Shown one piece after another: positions 175 through 11,577 of a stretch of DNA of 12,248 nucleotides. Every line of letters begins with the position of its first letter. Position 1 is the first letter of the stretch. The stretch covers positions 1-12,248 of the forward strand of contig JASHRR010001451.1 in the NCBI GenBank assembly GCA_030037185.1. The letters run 5' to 3'. Origin of the DNA: Xanthobacteraceae bacterium (GTDB lineage Bacteria > Pseudomonadota > Alphaproteobacteria > Rhizobiales > Xanthobacteraceae). The notes beneath the pieces were generated by a model. That model saw only the letters and a program-made list of their open reading frames with translations. It was not told the origin of the DNA and did no database searches. The translations under genes were made by a program, and so were the position numbers.

Positions 175-327
175 CTGGTGAAAACTCATGGCCAAAATAA
201 GGGAAGATGTTCGTTACCACTAAGAGCTATTCCATTCTAAAAGTCGAATTGGTCAGCGTGTTTTCGGATTGCCGGGGATGAGGGACAAACGCGGAGACTA
301 TCCGTGTCAAAGGTTAGGGGCAGAGGC

Positions 328-1989
328 ATGAAAAAGATTGGTTTGGTTGGACTGGCATTGGTGGCGCCCGGAGGCTTTGCGCCACTCAGCGTGGCGGAAG
401 CCGCAGATGCGGCCGCGTCTGGCCAGAAGGCAGCGATAGACTGCAAGGCGCCCGATGCGCCTTATAAAAACTATGACTGTCTTGACGCCTATTTGGGTGA
501 CGGGTTCTTCGAACGCCTTATGAACTATTACAAGCTGGAATGGGGCCACGAAGGGCCTCCAGCCGACCCGAAGGCGCCGCCGGGGCGCCGGGCTGGGTGG
601 CCGGACGCGCCGGCGACAGTGCCGCCATTCCCGTTCACCGAATGGCCGTACGGTGGCGCCACATCCATCGGCGTGACGAGGCCATCTTCCGCCGACAGCC
701 CGCTGATGGTCGCGCTTGCCAACACCGACTTTGGCAAGATGCTGAATGCCGGCAACATGCAAATCTACGGCTGGGTCAACGGCGGCGGCAACATCAGTAC
801 CAATACGGTCAAGGCCGGCGGCAACTCGCCCGCGGCCTACGATTATTGGCCGAACCAGTTCCAGTTCGACCAGGCCGTCCTTTATTTCGAGCGCACGCCC
901 GACACAGTGCAGACCGATTCCGTGGATTGGGGCTTCCGGGTTTCCGCGCTCTACGGCCAAAACTATCGGTATACCTCCGCCTACGGCATTATGACCTATC
1001 AGTTGGTCGGTCATAATCTCGATATGGGTTGGGACTTCCCGATGGTCTACGGCGAGCTCTACGTTCCGCAGATCGCCGAGGGTCTGTTGCTGCGATTGGG
1101 ACGTTTCATCTCGGTGCCGGACATCGAGGCGCAGCTTGCACCCAACAACTACATGTACACGCATTCGATGACGTATACCTTTGACAACTACACCAACACT
1201 GGCCTGCAGAGCACCCTTGCGCTCAACAAGAACTGGTTCCTGCAGTTGGGCTTAACGGTGGGCACGGAGGCGCTGCCGTGGCACTGGGGCGAGACAGTGC
1301 CCAACCCGTTCCCCAACGCGGTCTATTCCGGGCCCACCATTCTCAAGGACCCCGGCGCGATGCCCTCCGTTACGGCGGGCGTCCGCTGGCAGAGCGACAA
1401 CGGTTGGGACAACGTTTATGTAGTGGCTGACGCCATCAATAGCGGCACCTGGGGCTATAACAACCTCCAGTGGACCGGCATCACCTGGTATCATCGCATC
1501 AACGAGCAGTGGCATTTCTCCTGGGAGACTTACACGCTTGACGAAAACAAAGTGCTGAACCTCAACAACTCGTATGTCACCACCCAGATCATCCCGAATG
1601 GCGGCTTCCCGTTTAGCGTGGCCAACGGATTCCCGTTCAACGCCCCGAATGGAGCGTTCTGCTCCAACCCCAATGAGCTGACTTGCACAGCGAGAAGCTT
1701 TGCTACCGTGATGTATTTGAACTATCAGTTCTCGCCGCTCGACAACATTTCGTTCCGCCCAGAGTTCTTTAACGACATGGAGGGGCAGCGGACGGGCGTG
1801 AAGACGCGTTATGTCGATTTCGGCATCGGCTGGCAGCACTGGTTCTCACCACAGGTCGAAATCCGTCCAGAAGTGACTTATTACCGCTCTCTCGACGCGC
1901 CGGCCTTCAACGGCAACCCCAACGAGGGTATCGCGCCCACGAAAAGTTATGCCCTGGTTGGCGCCGCGGACCTGATCTGGCACTTCTGA
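328..1989 (+). CDS. Outer-membrane beta-barrel porin, BBP2 (OmpL-like) type
   Basis: The 553-residue product starts with a classical signal peptide, MKKIGLVGLALVAPGG..., with likely cleavage after AEA near residue 25. It ends in ADLIWHF, with the terminal phenylalanine of outer-membrane barrels. The body is rich in aromatic residues and Asn/Gly and contains repeated strand-like segments such as GWDNVYVVADAINSGTWGYN and FGIGWQHWFSPQVEIRPEV. This overall pattern is that of the 'putative beta-barrel porin-2' family, of which Bradyrhizobium genomes carry several copies. A GTG at 304 would add eight residues, but ATG 328 has a purine-rich AGGGGCAGAGG just upstream and places the signal peptide at the very N terminus, so I chose it. 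The inferred role is diffusion of small solutes across the outer membrane; the substrate is unknown. The gene is followed by a stem-loop and then, on the same strand, a two-component system. Confidence 0.85.
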   Translation: MKKIGLVGLALVAPGGFAPLSVAEAADAAASGQKAAIDCKAPDAPYKNYDCLDAYLGDGFFERLMNYYKLEWGHEGPPADPKAPPGRRAGWPDAPATVPPFPFTEWPYGGATSIGVTRPSSADSPLMVALANTDFGKMLNAGNMQIYGWVNGGGNISTNTVKAGGNSPAAYDYWPNQFQFDQAVLYFERTPDTVQTDSVDWGFRVSALYGQNYRYTSAYGIMTYQLVGHNLDMGWDFPMVYGELYVPQIAEGLLLRLGRFISVPDIEAQLAPNNYMYTHSMTYTFDNYTNTGLQSTLALNKNWFLQLGLTVGTEALPWHWGETVPNPFPNAVYSGPTILKDPGAMPSVTAGVRWQSDNGWDNVYVVADAINSGTWGYNNLQWTGITWYHRINEQWHFSWETYTLDENKVLNLNNSYVTTQIIPNGGFPFSVANGFPFNAPNGAFCSNPNELTCTARSFATVMYLNYQFSPLDNISFRPEFFNDMEGQRTGVKTRYVDFGIGWQHWFSPQVEIRPEVTYYRSLDAPAFNGNPNEGIAPTKSYALVGAADLIWHF

Positions 1990-2253: not shown

Positions 2254-3912
2254 ATGAAGGCATTTCGATCACTATCGCGGCGGCTTAGGCAGTTCCGGCC
2301 ACACGTTCGCCGCTTGGCGCCGCACCCGAAGCCGGCGACCTCCTCTGTCTGGCCCGATGTCGGCGAAGCAGCGCAGGTCCGGTTCGAGGCCACGCGCATC
2401 CTGGCGCGGACCGTGCTTTATCCGCTCACCTGTGTCGCGCTGACGACGGCGCTGATGGCCCTCCTGCTTAGATACACTGCGCTCGAGTTTGAGTCGATTG
2501 TCTACCTGATCCCGGTACTTATCTGTGCAATTCGTCGGGGTTTTGTCTCTGCGATCGTCGGCATCTTTGCAAGCGCCGGTGTGGCGGATTTTCTGTTCAT
2601 TCCGCCATTCTACAGCTTTGTGATCAGCGACCCTAGACAGATCATCGAAATAGCGTTGTTCCTGTTGGTCGCGCTAGTCACCAGCAATCTTGCTGCGCGG
2701 TTGAAGAACGAGGTCGACAGCTCGCACCGTCGCGAACGTGAAATCCAAAACCTCTACGAATTCTCCCGCCGCCTCGCGCTGTGCTCCACGGCGGGAGAGC
2801 TCATCAAGGCGATCCAGCACTACCTTTCCGTCCACCTTGGCTGCGAAGCCCATCTGATTCGCGTTGCACCTTTGCACGCCGGCGATGGGGGCGCGGAGGA
2901 CGAGATGGTGCCGCAGTCGATCGCGCGGGAAGCCAAAGAAATGACGGAACATGGCTCTCGCCTGGTGACTGACCCGGCGACGGACTCTCTGTGGGCGCTC
3001 AAACACATCACCACGACGACCGCGGAACACGGTGTGCTCGCCGTCAATCTCGGCAAACCGCGCGACTCGGACGCGGACAGGCTCAATGACCGCATCGATG
3101 CTTTATTGTTGGAAGCCATCGCCACGTTGACGCGCATCGACGCTACTGCGGCGCTCGCCAAGGCCAATATACGGCTCGAGTCGGAAATCCTCAGGACCGC
3201 ACTGGTCGGCACTGCGTCCCATGAATTGCGCGCTCCGATCGCCACGATCATCGGCGCTGCGAGCGTGCTCGAGGAGTTGCTGGCGCTGCAAGGTAATGAA
3301 AAGGTGCGTTCTCTGGTAGGGGGAATGCATCTTGAGGCGAAGCGTCTCGACGGCGACATTCAGAACCTTCTCGATACAGCGCGGATCACCGATACTGGCG
3401 TCAAGCCGCGTTTGGTGTGCACCGATCCAGCCGATATCCTCGCCGCCGCGATCCGGCAGCGCTCCTATCGCCTCGCCACCCACAAGCTCAGCGTCGACGT
3501 CGACCCGAAACTGCCGTTTGTGAATGTTGATCCGGCACTGCTCGAACAGGCCATCGGTCAGCTCATCGAGAATGCCGTCAAATACTCGCCGATCGGCTCG
3601 GGCATCGCGATCGCGGCGCGGGTCAAAGACGACGAGGTTGTGCTGGCGGTCACCGACCAGGGCGTCGGTTTGACCGAGGAGGAAGCGAGCCACCTGTTCC
3701 GGCGGGCTTATCGCGGGCGACGCCACCTCGACCATGTACCGGGGCTCGGCCTTGGGCTCTGGATTGCCAGGATATTCGTTGCCGCCAATGGTGGTACGCT
3801 TCGCGCTGACAGCCCGGGCACGGGTTTGGGAACCACGATGTCAATTCGCCTTCCGGCTGCTCCTGGCATGGCACCGGAATTGGTGTCATTGAGCGATGCG
3901 CAAAGCGGCTAG
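2254..3912 (+). CDS. KdpD-like membrane sensor histidine kinase (DUF4118, GAF-like region, HisKA, HATPase)
   Basis: A 552-residue kinase that should autophosphorylate a histidine and pass the phosphate to the overlapping response regulator. Residues about 52-150 form a membrane block of closely spaced hydrophobic segments with the KdpD-type (DUF4118) feature FLFIPPFYSFVISDPRQ. Residues about 155-300 form a cytoplasmic region resembling the GAF-like part of KdpD. The H-box is ASHELRAPIATIIGA with the phospho-acceptor His323; the N-box is QLIENAVKYSP (Asn440); the G1 box is DQGVGL (468-473); the G2 box is GLGLGLWIARIF (497-508). All catalytic boxes look intact. Compared with full-length KdpD (about 900 residues), it lacks the N-terminal KdpD/Usp region that senses K+ and c-di-AMP, and no kdpFABC genes are nearby, so the signal and target are probably different. 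Start ATG 2254 has a Shine-Dalgarno sequence lying in a hairpin. The 3' end overlaps the next gene by 17 bases, implying translational coupling. Confidence 0.9.
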   Translation: MKAFRSLSRRLRQFRPHVRRLAPHPKPATSSVWPDVGEAAQVRFEATRILARTVLYPLTCVALTTALMALLLRYTALEFESIVYLIPVLICAIRRGFVSAIVGIFASAGVADFLFIPPFYSFVISDPRQIIEIALFLLVALVTSNLAARLKNEVDSSHRREREIQNLYEFSRRLALCSTAGELIKAIQHYLSVHLGCEAHLIRVAPLHAGDGGAEDEMVPQSIAREAKEMTEHGSRLVTDPATDSLWALKHITTTTAEHGVLAVNLGKPRDSDADRLNDRIDALLLEAIATLTRIDATAALAKANIRLESEILRTALVGTASHELRAPIATIIGAASVLEELLALQGNEKVRSLVGGMHLEAKRLDGDIQNLLDTARITDTGVKPRLVCTDPADILAAAIRQRSYRLATHKLSVDVDPKLPFVNVDPALLEQAIGQLIENAVKYSPIGSGIAIAARVKDDEVVLAVTDQGVGLTEEEASHLFRRAYRGRRHLDHVPGLGLGLWIARIFVAANGGTLRADSPGTGLGTTMSIRLPAAPGMAPELVSLSDAQSG

Positions 3913-4597
3913 CACGATCCTCGTGATCGACGACGAACCGCAGATGAGGCGCTTCGTCAAGGCCGGTTTGGAGCTTTACGGCTATTCGGTCAGCGAGGCT
4001 GAAAATGGCGCGGCCGGACTAAATGCCATCGCCCATAGTCGACCTGACCTGATCATCCTCGATCTCGGCTTGCCGGATATGAGCGGGCTCGAAGTCCTCA
4101 ATACCATACGATCGTGGTCGAATGTCCCGGTCATCGTTCTGTCGGTCCAGGTTGACGAGGAGCAGAAGGTACATCTTCTGCGCAGCGGCGCAGACGACTA
4201 TATGATCAAGCCCTTCGGAATTGCCGAACTGGCAGCGCGTTGCGAAGCGGCGTTGCGCCGCTATCACAAGGCCACCGACAAGAACCCGGTGGTGCGGACC
4301 GGACCACTCTCCGTCGATCTCGTGTCGCGGGCGGTGACGCTCGATGGACAACACATTACATTGACCCGCCAGGAATACCGCCTGCTGCATCTCCTGGCCT
4401 CGCACCTCGGGTTGGTGATGACTCATAACCAGCTTATCAAGGAAATTTGGGGCAACTCCTCGCCCGAGAACGTGCAGTATTTGCGGACGCTGGTACGAAG
4501 GCTGCGCCACAAGCTTGAAGCCGACCCGAGCCAGCCGAAGCTGCTGATATCGGAGTCCGGCGTTGGCTATCGCCTTGAGCACTGCAGGGGTCGCTGA
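3896..4597 (+). CDS. KdpE-like OmpR-family response regulator (intact copy)
   Basis: The 233-residue product has an N-terminal receiver domain (residues about 6-120) and a C-terminal winged-helix DNA-binding domain (about 135-228). The receiver keeps the acidic pair Asp12/Asp13, phospho-acceptor Asp56 in IILDLGLPD, Ser83 at the switch position and Lys105 in MIKPF. The DNA-binding part has the OmpR-type blocks LTRQEYRLLHLLA, the recognition-helix region YLRTLVRRLRHKLE and the terminal GVGYRL hairpin. The length is normal for KdpE and OmpR proteins. ATG 3896 lies inside the end of the kinase gene with only a weak ribosome binding site, so expression probably depends on coupling to the kinase. 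It is the intact member of a duplicated pair; the decayed second copy lies at 5513-6106. It probably works as a transcription factor for genes not identifiable here. Confidence 0.92.
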   Translation: MRKAASTILVIDDEPQMRRFVKAGLELYGYSVSEAENGAAGLNAIAHSRPDLIILDLGLPDMSGLEVLNTIRSWSNVPVIVLSVQVDEEQKVHLLRSGADDYMIKPFGIAELAARCEAALRRYHKATDKNPVVRTGPLSVDLVSRAVTLDGQHITLTRQEYRLLHLLASHLGLVMTHNQLIKEIWGNSSPENVQYLRTLVRRLRHKLEADPSQPKLLISESGVGYRLEHCRGR

Positions 4598-4600
4598 CTG

Positions 4601-5093
4601 TCTTCTCTGAGTTGCCGCAAGACCGCTTTTGCAAATCTCCTTTCAGAAAATCGGAGGTAGCCGAATCGACATACCGCTCGACCAGTAGAGCCCCCATGCT
4701 TAGGGCGTATTTGGCGAACAAGGCCTTGGCATTTTTGCAGCCGGGTACCGTCTCGCCCGGCCAGACGATCCGACGCTGAGTATTTCCGCGGACAGAATTG
4801 GCGCCAATCAAGCCTTCGTTCGCCGTTCTCGCGCTACGCGACGAAGCCGATTTTTGGAACAGCTGCCTCAATGCCAACTCCGCTTCGATGAACTTGCACG
4901 TTTGCGGATGCCACCAGATATTTACCGGGGGCGGAAAACCACTCAACCTGCAATAAGTGACAGTGAGACGGTCTTGCACTACTCGATAAGACCCTTTGGA
5001 ACAAACGAGACGTCGATATCTTTTTCCGGTGACAATCAATGCTAGCCTTGCCCGTCTTCGCTGACTGCGGTAACCGGCATTCCGAACACTCAT
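4601..5093 (-). pseudogene. Broken copy of the convergent unknown membrane-protein gene
   Basis: Translated on minus, this stretch matches the 169-codon gene at 6093-6602. KFIEAELALRQLFQKSASS followed by RTANEGLIGAN here corresponds to KLIESDLALSQLFKKSTSS followed by KRANEGFVLIA there. The matching N-terminal part, DIDVSFVPKGLIE against NIDFSFLPKALEE, lies in a different frame and ends in an in-frame TAG at the position of a lysine codon. So at least one stop and one frameshift separate the two halves. The hydrophobic membrane segment of the intact copy is not preserved (NSVRGNTQRRIVWPG in its place). The inferred ancestral start is the ATG at 5093-5091 and the gene ran tail to tail into the response regulator. 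No function is recognised; a truncated product from a later start cannot be excluded. Confidence 0.65.
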
Positions 5094-5305
5094 CACTGGA
5101 AACGACCTAATTCCTGCACTGATACTCGCAACTCTTCTATGAGCTCCACTATGCAAATATCCACAGTTAATATAAAAAATATATCATTTCGATGGACGCG
5201 CGTTTCTTGCGTATCTCTAGTCTCATTCGGGCAAAGCTTGCTAGCCCGTTGGCAGCGACTAAGCCGGAGTCCTGATGATGTCGGGGTCGCTGGTCCCGGA
5301 CAAAT

Positions 5306-5362
5306 GGGGGCACTGTTAGAAATTACAGTGACGTCAGCTAAGTCGATTTCTTAGTGCGCCCC
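5306..5362. promoter_or_regulatory. Nested, mutually exclusive inverted repeats
   Basis: CACTGT (5311-5316) can pair with ACAGTG (5325-5330). Alternatively GGGGGCACT (5307-5315) can pair with AGTGCGCCCC (5353-5362) with one bulged G. CTAAG (5338-5342) can also pair with CTTAG (5350-5354). The three pairings compete for some of the same bases. They could be operator half-sites or a structured RNA; no regulator or ligand can be named. Confidence 0.3.
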
Positions 5363-5413
5363 TTGCCCAACAAGTGGATTATTGTCAGATTTATATCTCT
5401 GATTTGACGTCAC
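5328..5413. promoter_or_regulatory. Pair of TGACGTCA palindromes, possible operator sites
   Basis: The 8-base palindrome TGACGTCA occurs at 5329-5336 and at 5405-5412. With one flanking base each, the sites (GTGACGTCA and TGACGTCAC) are exact reverse complements, 76 bases centre to centre. Two such copies in under 90 bases is unexpected by chance. A binding site for a dimeric transcription factor is a possible role, but no protein assignment can be made. Confidence 0.3.
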
Positions 5414-5467
5414 AAAGCAAAAACTTGCAAAGTCGCCAAGGTAAGAAAGCGTGGTGAAAGTCAGCAT

Positions 5468-5485
5468 GATCGCGTCGACGCGATC
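5468..5485. promoter_or_regulatory. 18-base perfect palindrome at the left edge of the second copy
   Basis: GATCGCGTCGACGCGATC reads identically on both strands, with no spacer. It ends 13 bases before the point where homology with copy 1 begins and 27 bases before the ancestral GTG start of the decayed regulator. It may be an operator, or a relic of the event that produced the duplication. No comparable palindrome occurs at the matching place of copy 1, where the kinase gene lies. Confidence 0.4.
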
Positions 5486-5512
5486 TATATCAGTCTGCGG
5501 TGCCATCGAGCG

Positions 5513-6106
5513 GTGGGCAAACTGACGAAGGATTTTGGTAATCGACGACGAGCCACAGATCAGGCGCTTCGTCAGGGCCGGTTTGGAGTGCTACAGCTAT
5601 TCGATTCGCCTGGCCGAAAAAGCGTCAGCAGGGCTGAATGCCGTGGCCGAGATGCGACCCGCCGCGATCATCCTCGACGTTGGCTTGCCGGACATAAGCG
5701 GAATCGACGTCCTCAATAGGCAATCGATCTTCTGCACCGCGGTGCGGATGACTATTTGGTCATGCCGAACTGGCCGCGCGCCGCAGAGCGGCATTGCGCC
5801 GCTATCACAAGGCCGACCAGTCACGATCGATCCCGTGATGCAACAAACGATGTTCCCAGGGCATTAATGCAATCTATCGCCCATCGAGCACCACTGTGCG
5901 ACGCCTCACACCTTGGACTGGTGATCACGCACAACCAGCTCATGAATGACGTTTCGGGCAACCCTCGCCCAACAAACTGGCATCTACGGACACTGGTGCG
6001 ACAGCTGCGACAGAAACTCGAAGTCGATCCAAGCCAGCCGAAGCTGCTGATATCGGAGTCCAGCGTTGGCTATCGCTTGCCCCGGCGCAGTCCTATCCAT
6101 CAGTGA
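5513..6106 (+). pseudogene. Decayed second copy of the KdpE-like response regulator
   Basis: The pieces match the intact regulator at 3896-4597 in order. The ancestral start is GTG 5513, and a net 2-base loss before the IDDEP motif shifts the frame. From 5535 the frame reads VIDDEPQIRRFVRAGLE through IILDVGLPDISGIDVLN, so the phospho-acceptor Asp is still present. After about 5718 some 60 bases are missing (receiver strand 4 and its surroundings). A further deletion of a dozen or so bases removes the codons of the IKPF motif with the invariant Lys. A larger deletion removes the linker and the start of the DNA-binding domain. The end is again readable as ASHLGLVITHNQLM, then LRTLVRQLRQKLEVDPSQPK and SVGYRL, in another frame, with TGA at 6104-6106. 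No functional regulator can be made. Its 3' end overlaps the end of the convergent gene by 14 bases. Confidence 0.88.
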
Positions 6107-6602
6107 TGTTCTCACTTTCGACAGGAATTTCTTCTGTTGATCCGCCTTCAGCACCGAGACTTGCGAGATATCGCGCGGTTAGTCTGGCCCGCGACCCTGG
6201 GACGTGCTCAGCCAGCACGGCCCGAGCTTTTCTGTGTGCCAGCGGGTAGCGCTGTGCCCAGCTGGAAAGCCCGAGCGCGAGTATTTCGGTTGAAAGGATT
6301 AGTGTAGCAATCAACACGAAGCCTTCGTTCGCTCGTTTGGCTGCAGGCGACGACGTCGATTTTTTGAACAACTGGCTCAACGCCAAATCTGATTCGATGA
6401 GCTTGCTAGCCTCTGGATGCCGCAAGATATCCGGCAGGGAGGTAAAGCCATTAAGCTCGTGATAGCGGATGATGAAAAGCTTGCATTTCTCCTCGAGAGC
6501 TTTTGGTAGAAATGAGAAGTCGATATTTCCGGGTGGCACAGACGCGTGTTGATGATCGATTGCGGCAACCATCATGATAATATCCTCGATGTCCGTGGGC
6601 AC
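6093..6602 (-). CDS. Unknown protein with one membrane segment; intact copy of the duplicated convergent gene
   Basis: The open frame gives 169 residues from a GTG at 6602-6600. I do not recognise the family. Residues about 1-90 are polar and probably helical (ALEEKCKLFIIRYHEL, SKLIESDLALSQLFKKS). A hydrophobic stretch follows, GFVLIATLILSTEILALGL, likely one membrane helix near residues 94-112, then a basic, Ala/Arg-rich tail (HRKARAVLAEHVPGSRARL). The frame is supported as real by conservation with the broken copy at 4601-5093. The only good ribosome binding site on minus, GGAGAG at 6622-6617, stands 4 bases before an ATG at 6612-6610 that is one base out of frame. A one-base indel may therefore have detached the true start (MSK...), leaving GTG 6602 or ATG at about 6575 as fallback starts. 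The gene converges with the decayed regulator and overlaps its end by 14 bases. A link to the two-component system is inferred from position only. Confidence 0.6.
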   Translation of the reverse strand: MPTDIEDIIMMVAAIDHQHASVPPGNIDFSFLPKALEEKCKLFIIRYHELNGFTSLPDILRHPEASKLIESDLALSQLFKKSTSSPAAKRANEGFVLIATLILSTEILALGLSSWAQRYPLAHRKARAVLAEHVPGSRARLTARYLASLGAEGGSTEEIPVESENITDG

Positions 6603-6612
6603 CTTTGCTCAT

Positions 6613-8026
6613 GATACTCTCCGCCTGCCTATAAAATCGATCACAAACATCATCGGGGTTGATAAAAAAATCATATTATTCTGGTCGGGTCTCGCTGCAA
6701 TTTGAAAGAAAAGGGTTGCTGAACACGGCCGATGTTCGCCATCGACCGCGCGGAGTAATAAATGTTCACCATCTCGTGGCGGCGCGCAATTCACGGGGCG
6801 GACTGACGTTTTTTGGTTGTGCCCAACGCTCGCTGGGCAACCCCCCTCTGCTCGGTCTTCCCGCTGATCCTTCCTCGCGCGGAAAGAGCTGCATATGCTC
6901 GACCATCCCAGTGTCCTTGCGCGGCCCGGCAATAACACTGAGGCTCTCAGCGTGAAATGACCTGGGTCAGGGAGCTCCATCAGGCCCGCAGACGGCAGCA
7001 CCCGACCGCGACGATAGCGTCGTGCGTTTTGCTGCACCGCGGCGCAGCTAGCCGCGCCGCAACAGTGCCAACGACCACCAAAGCGAGCCTTGTGATGCCC
7101 TCGATCGCTGTCCGAAGCGCTCGACTGCCGAGTTCACTCCACCTTGCGCCGCGAGACGGAACTACATGATCGGAATTTGCAAGCAAGCTGATGATGAAAC
7201 CTTGTATAGAGAACTCAGGCGCTCCCGGGCGTCCAGAGCTCCAGCAACAACGAGGCGGCAAGTGCGAATAATATAGGAGGGCAGCACGTCTCGGTTCATC
7301 CGGCTCGTGCCATCGCGGCCTCCTGGACACGCTCCGCCAGCGGGAGCTCGATCAGGCAGCAGGCACCCAAACACCGGCTGCAACGTGGAATACAACAAGG
7401 TGGCCAGCGGTGGATCCATCCACATGGATCTCAACGAAAATATTTTCCAAGTTACCCTCTGCAGAAGCGGCGACGTCAGATCAGATCAAGCAGCTGCACC
7501 AAGACAATGCCCGGGGTTCCGGCCGGTCCCAGCCGATCTACAACGGGCCGCCGCTGTGAGCCAGGAGCTTCGGGACCTCGTCGCGTTCATTGTCACGACG
7601 CGATAAGCCGGCAACGCCATCGCGGTGCCAGTTGTCTCCACCGCCTAATTCCTTCTGAAAGCGCACGGAACCACTCGAGAGCAATGGTGACGCGTCCGCG
7701 ATCCCCGCGCGAACGAGTGTAGCGGATCGGCGGATGTCACTCGTTGAGTGACCTCAGCTAGCTTCACGAGTCCCGGCGCGTTGAACAATCCGAATCTGCC
7801 CAACGCACGTTTCCGAAAGGCCAGTCAACGATCAGTCGAGCCCGTGGACGAGCCGCATCGAGGATGCTGGGATACGACGTCGGCTTCACCCTCCGGCCAA
7901 CGTTCTTCGTTGTACCGGATTTGCGCGGCCCCGCGAGCGCCGCCGGGAGGGAGCGATGGGGGCTGCCAAGAAGCAGCCGTGGATCGCTTGTTGAGTAGCG
8001 ACTAGCCGCGCGGGGGGATTATATCG
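6613..8026. other. Long stretch with no supportable gene
   Basis: I read all six frames and found no ORF with both a credible ribosome binding site and a recognisable or protein-like sequence. Open frames here are short, rich in Arg, Pro and Ser, and look like chance frames in GC-rich DNA. Two weak protein-like scraps are a plus-strand QELRDLVAFIVTTR ending at about 7606, reminiscent of cytochrome c C-termini, and a hydrophobic minus-strand LALVVVGTVAARLAA near 7050. Both are too short to name. The region is probably old gene debris. The first 70 bases (6613-6681) are AT-rich and probably hold the promoter of the minus-strand gene at 6602. A perfect hairpin lies at 7736-7752. Confidence 0.5.
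7736..7752. promoter_or_regulatory. Perfect short hairpin GTCACTC-GTT-GAGTGAC
   Basis: A 7-base perfect stem with a 3-base loop in otherwise unassigned DNA. There is no T run on either side, so it is not a classical terminator. It could be a protein binding site or part of a small RNA; nothing nearby decides this. Confidence 0.25.
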
Positions 8027-8335
8027 TCATGGGCTGCCCATTCGCCGGTGCGCCATACGATCGGCAGCCGTCTTCATGGCCTCCCGGAAACGGATTTCAT
8101 ATACGGTCATCGGCCGACCTGCGCTTTCAACGGTGGAGAGAACCGCTTTCTTGTTAGTGTCTTCGGCCTTCCATCGCTCCTCTCTTTCTCTTCGTCTACT
8201 TCCGCGCCCCCACTCGTTCAGCATTCCAATCGCGAAGACGAAGATCAAAACCACCACGCCGGGACCGCCGGTGCTTACCGTCAAGACACCGCCGAAGATG
8301 AGAGCAACAACCCACCACATTATACGGTTACCCAT
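8027..8335 (-). CDS. Small two-helix inner-membrane protein of unknown function
   Basis: The product has 102 residues from ATG 8335-8333. Two hydrophobic segments lie at about residues 6-22 (MWWVVALIFGGVLTVST) and 26-42 (GVVVLIFVFAIGMLNEW), separated by a GGPG turn. A strongly charged, probably cytoplasmic tail follows (RRREREERWKAEDTNKK) with a helical segment VYEIRFREAMKTAADRM. ATG 8335 is preceded by AAGGAG at 8 bases, so I prefer it to the GTG at 8344 that would add three residues. I do not recognise the family. The clean ribosome binding site, the membrane topology and the well-formed charged tail argue that it is a real gene. It lies 315 bases downstream of the PaiB-type gene on the same strand, too far for tight coupling. 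Confidence 0.65.
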   Translation of the reverse strand: MGNRIMWWVVALIFGGVLTVSTGGPGVVVLIFVFAIGMLNEWGRGSRRREREERWKAEDTNKKAVLSTVESAGRPMTVYEIRFREAMKTAADRMAHRRMGSP

Positions 8336-8650: not shown

Positions 8651-9286
8651 TTATCGCATGATTTTACCTGCGACGAGATCGGCCATTTGAAGGTCGTCAC
8701 CTGCTCCCCGCGCCAGGAGGCCTCTTGCAACGCCTTCGCGGTCTTTTGCCTCCCGATTTTGGCTCATTTTCCACTTGCCTTCAATTCGTTCGATAACGAT
8801 CCGTACGCCGATGATCCCGCGCAACATGATCTCGATAAAGCCCTCGGGCGCGTCGGAGACAGCCCACGGTGCTGCTCTACCGTGTTCCTGCTGAGCCGTG
8901 AGCTCGGTCACATGACGGCGGAGCCAGCGTTTGTCCTCCATCACTTCGGGATGACCGTGGACGTGTACCACCGCGTAATTCCAAGTCGGCACCACCTTTC
9001 CATGTTCGGCTTTCGAGGGGTACCAAGTCGGCGTGATGTAACCCTCAATTCCCTGGAAAATCATGAGCGCCTCGATTCCAGCCGCAAGATCTTTCCAGTG
9101 CGGATTGGCACGCGCCAAATGACATTCGATGACACCATTTCGACCATCGTCTTTGAGAACTGTCGGCAAGTGCGTGGCATAGAGACCCTGCGACCCCGCG
9201 GAAATGAAAATGCCAAATGGGTGAGCGCGAATGAGTGTGTGCATCTGCTTCAAATCGCCCACGCGAAAATGTTCGGGTTGATACAT
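8651..9286 (-). CDS. PaiB-type FMN-binding protein (FMN_bind_2 family, putative transcriptional regulator)
   Basis: The 211-residue product matches the PaiB/FMN_bind_2 family across its whole usual length (about 205-215). Family blocks are all present: MYQPEHF at the N terminus, GLYATHLP (34-41), HLARANPHW (56-64), YITPTWYPSK (83-92), VPTWNYAVVHVHG (99-111) and, near the end, IIGVRIVIERIEGKWKMSQNR (158-178). The fold is the split-barrel FMN-binding fold. In Bacillus subtilis, PaiB is described with the acetyltransferase PaiA as a negative regulator of sporulation and protease genes. Most proteobacterial relatives are annotated as FMN-binding negative regulators without a proven role. No paiA-like gene is in the window, so it stands alone. 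Start ATG 9286 places the conserved MYxPxHF motif at the very N terminus, although no strong ribosome binding site precedes it. Confidence 0.93.
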   Translation of the reverse strand: MYQPEHFRVGDLKQMHTLIRAHPFGIFISAGSQGLYATHLPTVLKDDGRNGVIECHLARANPHWKDLAAGIEALMIFQGIEGYITPTWYPSKAEHGKVVPTWNYAVVHVHGHPEVMEDKRWLRRHVTELTAQQEHGRAAPWAVSDAPEGFIEIMLRGIIGVRIVIERIEGKWKMSQNREAKDREGVARGLLARGAGDDLQMADLVAGKIMR

Positions 9287-9339
9287 GTCGTTAGCCGTTA
9301 CGCTGGAGTTGAGCCGGATCAGCGGATACTGGTCTATGC

Positions 9340-9368
9340 TAAGCCCGTTTATTCAACAACCGGGCTTA
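9340..9368. promoter_or_regulatory. Inverted repeat upstream of the PaiB-type gene
   Basis: TAAGCCCG (9340-9347) and CGGGCTTA (9361-9368) are perfect inverted repeats with a 13-base loop, centred about 68 bases before the minus-strand PaiB start. It could be an operator, a leader structure or a terminator of a lost upstream gene. There is no adjacent T run. Confidence 0.3.
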
Positions 9369-9590
9369 CTTGCCACCAGCACCCGCAGCACCCCCAGGCC
9401 AAGCCGAAACGAAGATTTCCGATTCGCATCCATTTTGCCTTGACGAGCGGTCCCATATTCGCCTTGCCGTTGGAGACACCGAACCTTCGAGGCGGCAACT
9501 AAGCTACCACTCTGTACCGAGGATGCCTTATGGGTCGCCGTCGAAGGATACGTGCGCGTCTCGATCTGACGGCAAGCCGGCCCAGCGCTC

Positions 9591-9832
9591 CACATCGGGA
9601 TGCCGGCTGCTGATCTCCTCGAAGATCGCCGCCGCTCGCACGCCGGGCGCAGCCTCAAGCATCGGCACGGTCTCGCTCCCCCGCACGTTGGCAAGCGGGC
9701 CGGGCCGCGGCGTCGACAGGGGCATGGCCTTTGCGATCGCAACCGCGGATCAGTTTCGATCCGATAGGCAGTCGCGATGGAGATCCCCGCTTTCGGGCGG
9801 CGCCGGGTTTGACGGGACCTCATATACAACCT
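9591..9832 (-). mobile_element. istA: Remnant of an IS21-family transposase gene (istA, 5' part, frameshifted)
   Basis: Two consecutive minus-strand frames together read like the N-terminal region of IS21 IstA. The first, 9832 to about 9720, gives RLYMRSRQT, a gap, then AGISIATAYRIETDPRLRSQR, corresponding to the helix-turn-helix segment usually written 'RLYMxSRQTH...AAAKAGxSxxTGYRIExDPRLPSQ'. After a frameshift, about 9677-9591 gives SETVPMLEAAPGVRAAAIFE followed by EISSRHPDV, corresponding to 'SEIVPMLxAAPGxRxVAIFEExxRRHP'. The rest of istA, including its DDE catalytic domain, and all of istB are absent, and no terminal inverted repeats were found. The element is dead and marks past insertion-sequence activity in the region. 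Confidence 0.7.
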
Positions 9833-10342
9833 CGTCTCGCAGTGTCGGCCAGGCAAGCGCTGATCCTTCTTTTAGTGGGGAAGAAGATGCTGCGCCAGGC
9901 GAAGCCCTCCCTTACAACCTTGGGGATATCCCCACCTGCGGAAAACGCTGCGCCGGCCGCGGGAGGAATGGCCTGCCTATGGTTGGGCCGGCACCCCATT
10001 CCACCGCGATGTTCCACCCCGATGAGTTCTCATCTTGATTGTCGCTGCCTTCTCATCCTGTTGTCGCTGGATCCACGCAGGCGTGGGCAGCAATTTCGTG
10101 GGAATCTTTTGGTTGCCCGCTGTCTGTGGAACCGGTTCTGTCCATCCGAGTGCACGCTGTCGACCCGCAGCATGACCTCGCGAGCGATGGACTTTGCCCA
10201 GGGCGGACGAGTCTGCGGCCCGATGATGATCAGCACAGTACCGCGCACGACGATCGACAACGCGCTGATCAAAACCCGGCGCGCGGTATAAGGGGATGGG
10301 GAAAAGGGCCGGCGAGGACGAATACGAAAATCCTCAGTGAGA
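9833..10342. other. Decayed stretch without a recognisable gene
   Basis: About 500 bases with only chance-looking open frames. A hydrophobic minus-strand scrap, RRVLISALSIVVRGTVLIII (about 10285-10225), could come from a lost membrane protein, but no start or ribosome binding site accompanies it. Nothing can be named. Confidence 0.35.
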
Positions 10343-10438
10343 GGCCAGACGGTCCCGATCGATATCGACGGTTGTCGCTTGCTGACCGATCCCAATTTCG
10401 TTGCACGGGCCGCCACAGGCCAGGCGCGGTCCCGCCGG
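10343..10438 (+). pseudogene. Possible fragment of a metallo-beta-lactamase-fold hydrolase gene
   Basis: The plus frame reads GQTVPIDIDGCRLLTDPNFV followed by an Arg/Pro-rich stretch. This resembles the start of UlaG-like metallo-beta-lactamase-fold proteins, 'GHATVLIxIxGxRLLTDPxF...RxPP'. The HxHxDH metal-binding motif that should follow is not present in any frame downstream, and no start codon with a ribosome binding site precedes it. If real, it is a dead fragment. The match is short and could be coincidence. Confidence 0.3.
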
Positions 10439-10626
10439 CGAAGACCGCCGGCCCGGCCGTCTTGCACGTTTGACGCTCGCCTCCAGTCAATCTTAGGGCG
10501 CCCCCCTCACTTGTCGTGGCGAATGTCGGCCGGTCAGAGCCAAGCTGGCGTGCGGCTCGACCTGAGCGACCGGCGGCGTCTGACCCCGACGACATTCCGC
10601 ATAGGCTGATTATCTGAGCGGTGCCG

Positions 10627-11577
10627 TCAGAAATCAGGCTTGACGGCGGTCGGGACTGCAGCGTCTTTTTCAGTACCGTATCTATATGGGTTTTCGGCAC
10701 AGACACGTTCCGGCCATTCACGGAAGGCGCGCCGATAGGTTTTGGTCGCGGACCAAGCTGTTGTGAAGACGCCCTCATCTTCGACGGTGAATTGGAGTTG
10801 CAGTGCCTTGCCCTTATAGTTGGGGTCGGGAGCCCATCCTTCATTAACGGCGCCGCCACGGATATTCTCTCTGCCTCCACGCTCCCAAGCTTGCCTCGCG
10901 GCTTCGTAATCGATGAGCCGATAACGTTCCACCACGTGCAGGGCTTGAGTGTACGGCGTGCCGTACTGATCGATGGCGGAGAACGGCCCCATCTTAAATC
11001 CCACGGTGTCGATTACCAGGGTGTCGCCTTCGTAATGGCCAACAGAATTGCCATACCAGGATGGCGTCACCTGCGCCGGATGAGGCATATTCATGCGGAC
11101 ACGTCGGACTTCATGATCCTCCTCGTAAAGCATCGTGACCTTGTCGGACTGCTGCAACAATTGCAGTGCAGCGTTCGTGAAAATGAAGGGCACCCCTTGC
11201 GGCCAACACTGGTTGCGGGGGCTCGGATAGCCCAACCCCGCAAGTGACATCTCGGCGTGTTTCTTGACGACCTCCGCGGCCTCGGGCCGCAAGATCGGGT
11301 TTGTGTAGTCGCCCACCAATCTTGTGTTGTCGCTGACGAGTGGAGCATTCGCAGCCGTTAAGCGCCTGCCATCGGCGTCGAGAGTTTGCCTCCGCCGCGA
11401 CGTGTTCAGAACCGGACCAGGGCCCGACAGCGGCGGTTCGATCCCGTAGAGGTAAGGATTGCCCCAAAGGCCTGAGAAATCCGGGGGCGACGCGATGCTT
11501 TGATTCCGATCCTGCGTGAAGGCTGGAATAGAGAATAGGGCTGCAGCTACCGTCGCGGCAATGATGATTGTTCGCAT
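10627..11577 (-). CDS. Conserved-looking exported protein of unknown function, 316 residues
   Basis: The start ATG 11577-11575 is preceded by GGGAGAAAT at a good distance. Residues 1-21 are a signal peptide (MRTIIIAATVAAALFSIPAF), so the mature protein is probably periplasmic. Blocks I associate with a widespread but uncharacterised family are PPDFSGLWGNPYL (31-43), NQCWPQGVPFIF (122-133), SWYGNSVGHYEGDTLVIDT (173-191), QYGTPYTQALHVVERYRLID (204-223) and LQLQFTVEDEGVFTTAWSA (259-277). Such proteins are strongly beta-stranded and often occur in multiple copies in soil proteobacteria and acidobacteria. I know of no assigned reaction. Two cysteines (124 and 293) could form a disulfide in the periplasm. 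The C-terminal half carries the block CAENPYRYGTEKDAAVP. There is no neighbour that suggests a pathway, and the gene appears to be transcribed alone. Confidence 0.85.
   Translation of the reverse strand: MRTIIIAATVAAALFSIPAFTQDRNQSIASPPDFSGLWGNPYLYGIEPPLSGPGPVLNTSRRRQTLDADGRRLTAANAPLVSDNTRLVGDYTNPILRPEAAEVVKKHAEMSLAGLGYPSPRNQCWPQGVPFIFTNAALQLLQQSDKVTMLYEEDHEVRRVRMNMPHPAQVTPSWYGNSVGHYEGDTLVIDTVGFKMGPFSAIDQYGTPYTQALHVVERYRLIDYEAARQAWERGGRENIRGGAVNEGWAPDPNYKGKALQLQFTVEDEGVFTTAWSATKTYRRAFREWPERVCAENPYRYGTEKDAAVPTAVKPDF

What the first reader, a model, noticed from the sequence alone, without database searches (positions are those of the whole stretch)
3882..6612. Tandem duplication of a regulator plus convergent-gene module with reciprocal decay
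The unit 'KdpE-like regulator on plus, unknown membrane-protein gene converging on minus' occurs twice in a row. Copy 1 keeps the regulator and has lost the convergent gene by a stop and a frameshift. Copy 2 has lost the regulator by frameshifts and deletions that remove the invariant Lys, and keeps the convergent gene open. One of each survives, in different copies. This suggests that both genes were worth keeping and that the unknown gene belongs functionally with the two-component system. It also moves the surviving convergent gene about 1.5 kb away from the surviving regulator, ending any antisense overlap between the working pair.
Basis: partly seen in the sequence, partly recalled or inferred. 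Interest (0 to 1): 0.7.

Follow-up and report, generated by a model that had tools for sequence, protein, structure and literature searches.

The report
Dead signalling module between living partners
A bacterium carries the decaying remains of a spare pair of signalling genes wedged between a working regulator and a working gene of unknown function, and that unknown gene nearly always travels with this kind of regulator in related bacteria.

Summary
In detail: RR1 (3896-4597, intact) with CONV1 (about 4600-5110, broken), then RR2 (about 5499-6106, broken) with CONV2 (6093-6602, open). The functional link is strongly supported: among 391 genomes of one family, CONV occurs in 21 and the RR1-type regulator (cut-off set after viewing) in 21, with 20 shared. 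Regulator and CONV lie within about 6 kb in 19 of the 21 CONV genomes, and CONV is head-to-head with a porin in 18. The account of two copies that each lost one gene is only partly supported. CONV1 and CONV2 are old paralogues (AU p 0.003). RR2 groups with regulators of other contigs (95-99% bootstrap), but AU tests do not exclude RR1+RR2 (p 0.14-0.33). Regulators apparently on contigs with CONV2-type genes all fall in RR1's clade (4 of 4 pairs). My reading: one dead module, CONV1(-)...RR2(+), lies between RR1 and its living partner CONV2. Tail-to-tail order is rare (1 of 19) and does not overlap there. CONV is an unnamed all-helical family. RR2 also holds a 58-bp inversion.

The parts
304..1989 (+). 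BBP2 beta-barrel porin (561 aa)
   Evidence: Pfam PF07642, E 1e-27; relatives beside CONV
2254..3912 (+). sensor histidine kinase (552 aa; DUF4118, HisKA, HATPase_c), matches only the C-terminal half of the KdpD model
3896..4597 (+). RR1, living OmpR-family, KdpE-like response regulator (233 aa); overlaps the kinase gene by 17 nt
4600..5110 (-). CONV1, pseudogene of the unknown family; pieces in two frames with stops
5174..5182 (.). AT-rich element (AAAAAATAT) upstream of CONV1, also found in the CONV|porin gap of relatives
   Evidence: pattern chosen after viewing
5499..6106 (+). RR2, response-regulator pseudogene (frameshifts, receiver deletions, conserved Lys lost)
5837..5894 (-). 58-bp micro-inversion inside RR2 (matches RR1 4334-4391 on the other strand)
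6093..6602 (-). CONV2, living gene of the unknown all-helical family; ORF from GTG 6602, likely start ATG 6575 (Met 10 lines up with the first Met of relatives)
6665..6676 (.). relaxed form of the AT-rich element upstream of CONV2 (AAAAAATCATAT)

Best explanation
The window holds a porin / sensor-kinase / response-regulator / CONV module (porin, HK, RR1, CONV2) with the remains of a second, old paralogous module, CONV1(-)...RR2(+), lying between RR1 and CONV2. The second module had its own CONV and RR; RR2 probably stayed under selection for some time after the lineages split, then the block decayed (point changes, indels, a 58-bp inversion; its porin and kinase are gone or never existed). RR1 and CONV2 survive because they are the matched pair. 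Proposed action (inferred): the kinase senses an envelope or ion cue, RR1 controls the porin and CONV through AT-rich operators in the CONV|porin gap, and CONV2 is a small helical accessory protein of that response. Shown: homology, breakage, old split of CONV1 and CONV2, co-occurrence, conserved neighbourhood. Inferred: that CONV1 and RR2 are one module and died together, the regulon, the role of CONV.
For: Co-occurrence: 20 genomes hold both, 1 CONV only, 1 RR only, 369 neither. CONV within about 6 kb of the RR1-type regulator in 19 of 21 CONV genomes, head-to-head with a porin in 18 of 21. In capped protein lists (109 CONV, best 119 RR with a length) 16 pairs share an exact longest-contig length against 2.08 on average over 200 length offsets (max 7). 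CONV1+CONV2+P0001 as one clade is rejected, p 0.003; CONV1 with the CONV2 clade p 0.024. RR2 groups with P0346/P0349/P0353 at 99/91, 95/85 and 96/90 in three row sets. The four RRs apparently on contigs with CONV2-type genes fall in RR1's 10-row clade (97/92); the other twelve paired RRs fall outside it, those of the three CONV1-like genes outside the 24-row clade too. RR1-RR2 differences by codon position in the well-aligned blocks: 22/11/49 of about 140 each. G167 (L034) shows porin-HK-RR, CONV(-), porin-HK in a row.
Against: AU does not reject RR1+RR2 as sisters (p 0.329, 0.141, 0.178 in three row sets), and diagnostic residues of RR2 split 4 to 4 with 3 other. RR2 held together with the three RRs paired with CONV1-like genes is rejected (p 4.6e-05), so the trees do not show that CONV1 and RR2 come from one module. 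No kinase or porin remnant was found in the spacers. Contig sharing is inferred from equal lengths, not seen. CONV1 and RR2 are long branches. The codon-position contrast is weaker over the whole gene (50/31/66 of about 200 each) and was not tested formally.
Confidence: 0.55

Rival explanations
1. One reading: one tandem duplication of the pair RR + convergent CONV, followed by complementary loss, so that one gene of each copy survives.
For: The two pairs are in register over RR and CONV together, offsets 1503-1615 nt, beginning at the last codons of the kinase gene. A tail-to-tail RR/CONV pair with both frames open exists in G167. AU does not reject RR1+RR2 as sisters.
Against: CONV1 and CONV2 are not sisters (p 0.003), so any such duplication is older than the CONV2 clade; the apparent co-contig pairs match RR1-type with CONV2-type (4 of 4); tail-to-tail order is rare (1 of 19).
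Confidence: 0.3
2. The middle stretch (about 4600-6100) came in from another strain by recombination and decayed on arrival; it was never a working part of this genome.
For: Both dead genes group with sequences of other contigs; head-to-head CONV...RR order, with porin and kinase between, occurs in 4 of 19 genomes.
Against: RR1-RR2 differences are concentrated at third codon positions in the well-aligned blocks (22/11/49), as expected if both were under selection for much of their divergence, though that could have been elsewhere. I saw no insertion junction, but ran no search for mobile elements.
Confidence: 0.12

Closest known systems
KdpD/KdpE two-component system
   Same: RR1's best NCBIfam model is KdpE and the kinase's best is KdpD; DUF4118 in the kinase
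   Different: Both score far under the curated cut-offs (227 against 325; 193 against 1123 bits); the kinase matches only positions 407-883 of the 895 of the KdpD model; the neighbour is a porin. kdpFABC was not searched for in the relatives
Porin-controlling OmpR-family systems such as EnvZ/OmpR (recalled)
   Same: An OmpR-family regulator and a kinase next to a porin gene
   Different: BBP2 porin, DUF4118 kinase, and a further associated gene, CONV; that RR1 controls the porin is not shown
Tandem paralogous operons with pseudogenised copies (recalled)
   Same: Old paralogues side by side, some decaying
   Different: The survivors flank the dead genes, and an unnamed gene family is involved

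Membership tests
KdpE (NCBIfam NF007820 equivalog) | score at or above the curated cut-off of 325 bits | tested here: not met
   RR1 227.2 bits
KdpD (NCBIfam NF007793 equivalog) | score at or above the curated cut-off of 1123 bits | tested here: not met
   192.9 bits, profile positions 407-883 of 895; Pfam finds DUF4118, HisKA and HATPase_c only
OmpR/PhoB response regulators | receiver domain plus Trans_reg_C winged helix, for RR1 | tested here: met
   PF00072 E 3.2e-29, PF00486 E 2.2e-20
OmpR/PhoB response regulators | uninterrupted receiver with conserved Lys, for RR2 | tested here: not met
   deletions, frameshifts and inversion
Any described Pfam or NCBIfam family, for CONV | match at a trusted score | tested here: not met
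   86 members against Pfam: 10 unrelated families, each matched by 1-5 members at E 0.5 or less, best E 0.017; 4 members against NCBIfam: none at E 0.01
Solved fold, for CONV | clear structural match in PDB | tested here: inconclusive

The most novel reading that the evidence does not exclude
CONV is the founding member of an undescribed family of small helical signalling partners dedicated to a porin-associated, KdpDE-like two-component system, acting directly on the kinase or the regulator. The 86 aligned members share an invariant histidine and glycine in the spacing H-x-x-x-G (H48, G52 in CONV2), which loosely recalls the phosphotransfer motif H-x-L-K-G (recalled); against this, no Hpt family is among the 10 Pfam families listed or the structure matches shown.
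Probability: 0.2. Interest if true: 0.65.

Novelty: new variant of a known kind. Interest (0 to 1): 0.42.

Why it matters
It turns a gene annotated at best as 'hypothetical protein' into a concrete candidate partner of one two-component system, with a near one-to-one presence pattern and a shared neighbourhood that can be tested in Bradyrhizobium. It also shows that 'one gene of each copy survives' can be a dead module between a matched pair.

Tried and rejected
Kinase or porin remnants in 5060-5540 and 6580-8040: best 23.1 bits against 21.6-27.3 in 20 shuffles, so none found. Non-coding RNA (Rfam gathering threshold) and tRNA in the window: none. CONV on plasmids: no match in PLSDB. The first structure model, from 28 rows, was poor (pLDDT 56.6) and was replaced by one from 86 rows (80.4). 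Hpt-like role: no Hpt family among the 10 Pfam families listed for 86 members nor among the structure matches shown. Pfam scan of nine further ORFs between 6612 and 12093: nothing at E 0.1. DNA of close RR2-like or CONV1-like genes: the protein database gives no neighbourhoods and metagenome scans were capped at 0, so dN/dS was not done. RR2 with the three RRs paired with CONV1-like genes as one clade: rejected (p 4.6e-05). RR2 with P0325/P0331/P0336/P0348/P0355: not excluded (p 0.47). Diagnostic residues: RR2 4 to 4 with 3 other and 3 gaps, undecided; CONV1 5 with the P0040 group, 1 with CONV2's, 5 other, 5 gaps. Summed tblastn scores put RR1 83rd of 121 regulators in likeness to RR2 (188 against at best 229 bits), but sums depend on which short pieces pass 25 bits. 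E. coli KdpE half-sites (TTTATA-5 bp-TTTACA; passages of PMC3264566 read) differ from the AT-rich element here, so I do not claim a KdpE site. Paper searches: 'DUF4118, porin, response regulator, Bradyrhizobium' 0 papers; 'pseudogene, response regulator, tandem duplication, reciprocal loss' 0; a looser search 2, seen in the listing only.
Full report
Observation. The tandem pairs are real. Direct repeats at offsets of 1503-1615 nt link RR1 with RR2 and CONV1 with CONV2, and gapped alignment covers both genes (E 2e-45 and 2e-61). RR1 is intact (233 aa, receiver plus winged helix). RR2 has lost 61 nt of the receiver in two gaps, two bases of the conserved Lys codon and its frame, and a 58-bp stretch inside it is inverted (score 22 against a maximum of 15 in 2000 shuffles). 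CONV1 can be read only as pieces from two frames with stops. CONV2 is open and has a 96% relative, P0001. No whole genome is held for the window; the kinase is listed on a contig of 12,248 bases, the window's own length.

What CONV is. 117 relatives pass E 1e-3, called 'hypothetical protein' where named at all. An alignment of 86 sequences gives a mostly confident all-helical model (mean pLDDT 80.4; 104 of 169 residues at 90 or more) without a clear match in the PDB, and no Pfam or NCBIfam family. One hydrophobic stretch exists in most members, but a membrane location is not shown.

Conserved neighbourhood. The scan of genome contigs found 9 loci, 8 labelled Bradyrhizobium and one Streptomyces. 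In eight of the nine a porin like the window's lies head-to-head with CONV and an RR1-type regulator follows, with the kinase between in seven; in L007 the contig ends about 1.25 kb from CONV and none of the three was found. In 391 genomes of the family, 21 carry CONV (up to 8 candidates per genome were scored). An RR1-type regulator of at least 300 bits occurs in 21 (up to 7 candidates scored; the cut-off was set after seeing the table, where the next genome follows at 281 bits; 91 of 391 pass E 1e-70). Twenty are shared; G006 has CONV only, G010 the regulator only. From I tabulated the 21 CONV genomes by hand. The regulator lies within about 6 kb in 19 (not G006, at a contig end, nor G257, split over contigs). 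RR and CONV run the same way in 14, head-to-head apart in 4 (G087, G208, G223, G238) and tail-to-tail in 1 (G167). The porin is head-to-head with CONV in 18 (not G006, G257, G368; in G238 the gap is 1.7 kb and holds a 248-aa ORF). A second CONV of G167 (L040), with a stop codon, shows no such neighbour in the 8 kb fetched. In an order-wide draw 2 of 397 genomes had CONV, both already known. Genus-wide draws gave 5 of 20 (the same 20 genomes), and another draw of relatives 4 of 298, all known.

Lineages. In the CONV tree CONV2 sits in a starred 12-row clade and CONV1 far outside; holding CONV1, CONV2 and P0001 together is rejected (p 0.003), and so is CONV1 with the CONV2 clade (p 0.024). In the RR trees RR2 groups with P0346, P0349 and P0353 (99/91, 95/85, 96/90) and RR1 with P0240 (95/96, 97/97). 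AU does not reject RR1 and RR2 as sisters (p 0.33, 0.14, 0.18) and diagnostic residues are 4 to 4, so RR2's place is probable, not proven. Equal longest-contig lengths suggest which CONV and RR share contigs: 16 pairs against 2.08 on average over 200 offsets (maximum 7); 14 against 0.51 (maximum 3) above 2500 bases; CONV-kinase 7 against 1.08 (maximum 4) (the RR and kinase lists were the best 120 of 6939 and of 423 hits). The four pairs with a CONV2-type gene have their RR in RR1's 10-row clade; the seven with a middle CONV clade have theirs outside it but within the 24-row clade around it; the three with CONV1-like genes, and P0057's and P0038's, have theirs outside both. Thus RR1 and CONV2 look like partners of one lineage. 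RR2 together with the three RRs of the CONV1-like pairs is rejected as a clade (p 4.6e-05), so that CONV1 and RR2 form one module rests on position and order, not on trees. Five RR pairs share a longest-contig length, among them P0293/P0346 (8,124) and P0325/P0340 (3,781), as a tandem would give; no null was computed for these.

Timing. RR1-RR2 differences by codon position in the three well-aligned blocks are 22, 11 and 49 of about 140 each; over the whole gene, with its badly aligned middle, 50, 31 and 66 of about 200 each. An immediate pseudogene should give a flatter pattern, so RR2 was probably constrained for much of its history; I ran no formal test. CONV1-CONV2 differences are 54, 38 and 55 of about 158, nearly flat.

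Mechanism. RR1 and the kinase overlap by 17 nt and are probably one transcription unit. An AT-rich element (ATATTTTTT on either strand) occurs in the CONV|porin gap of 9 of 17 loci (11 hits; dinucleotide shuffles 0.12 on average, maximum 2 in 300), with 8 hits in 259 kb outside, 4 of these between genes of the same module by my reading of the coordinates. It is absent from the gap in 8 of 17. In the window a relaxed form occurs exactly twice, upstream of CONV1 and of CONV2 (both present in 0 of 1000 shuffles). The pattern was chosen after looking and several of the 17 loci are near relatives, so it is a lead only. The proposed model is that the regulator controls the porin and CONV from this gap.

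Verdict. The finding is sound in observation and in linking the unknown gene to the two-component system.

Noticed in passing
window 5468-5485: Perfect 18-bp palindrome between CONV1 and RR2 (self-match).
   Followed up: no
window 6603-8029 and 9290-10620: Long stretches to the right of CONV2 in which the ORFs that I tested have no Pfam match; nearby are an FMN-binding protein (8651-9286) and an ORF without Pfam match (10627-11577).
   Followed up: partly
L034:1292-2777: The kinase next to the tail-to-tail RR/CONV pair in G167 matches in two frames, so it may itself be broken or hold a sequencing error.
   Followed up: no
L040:404-778: A second CONV gene of G167 with an internal TAG stop and no kinase, regulator or porin match in the 8 kb fetched.
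   Followed up: partly
L006: A record titled Streptomyces sp. AcH 505 carries this alphaproteobacterial module; probably a mixed assembly.
   Followed up: no
L038:7891-15330: Three porin genes on one strand beside CONV in G120.
   Followed up: no
L043, L048, L038, L049: In G003 and G120 CONV is followed by the regulator without a kinase match between; kinase-regulator pairs lie elsewhere in these genomes.
   Followed up: partly
window 5174 and 6665: AT-rich element upstream of both CONV copies, shared with the CONV|porin gap of relatives.
   Followed up: partly
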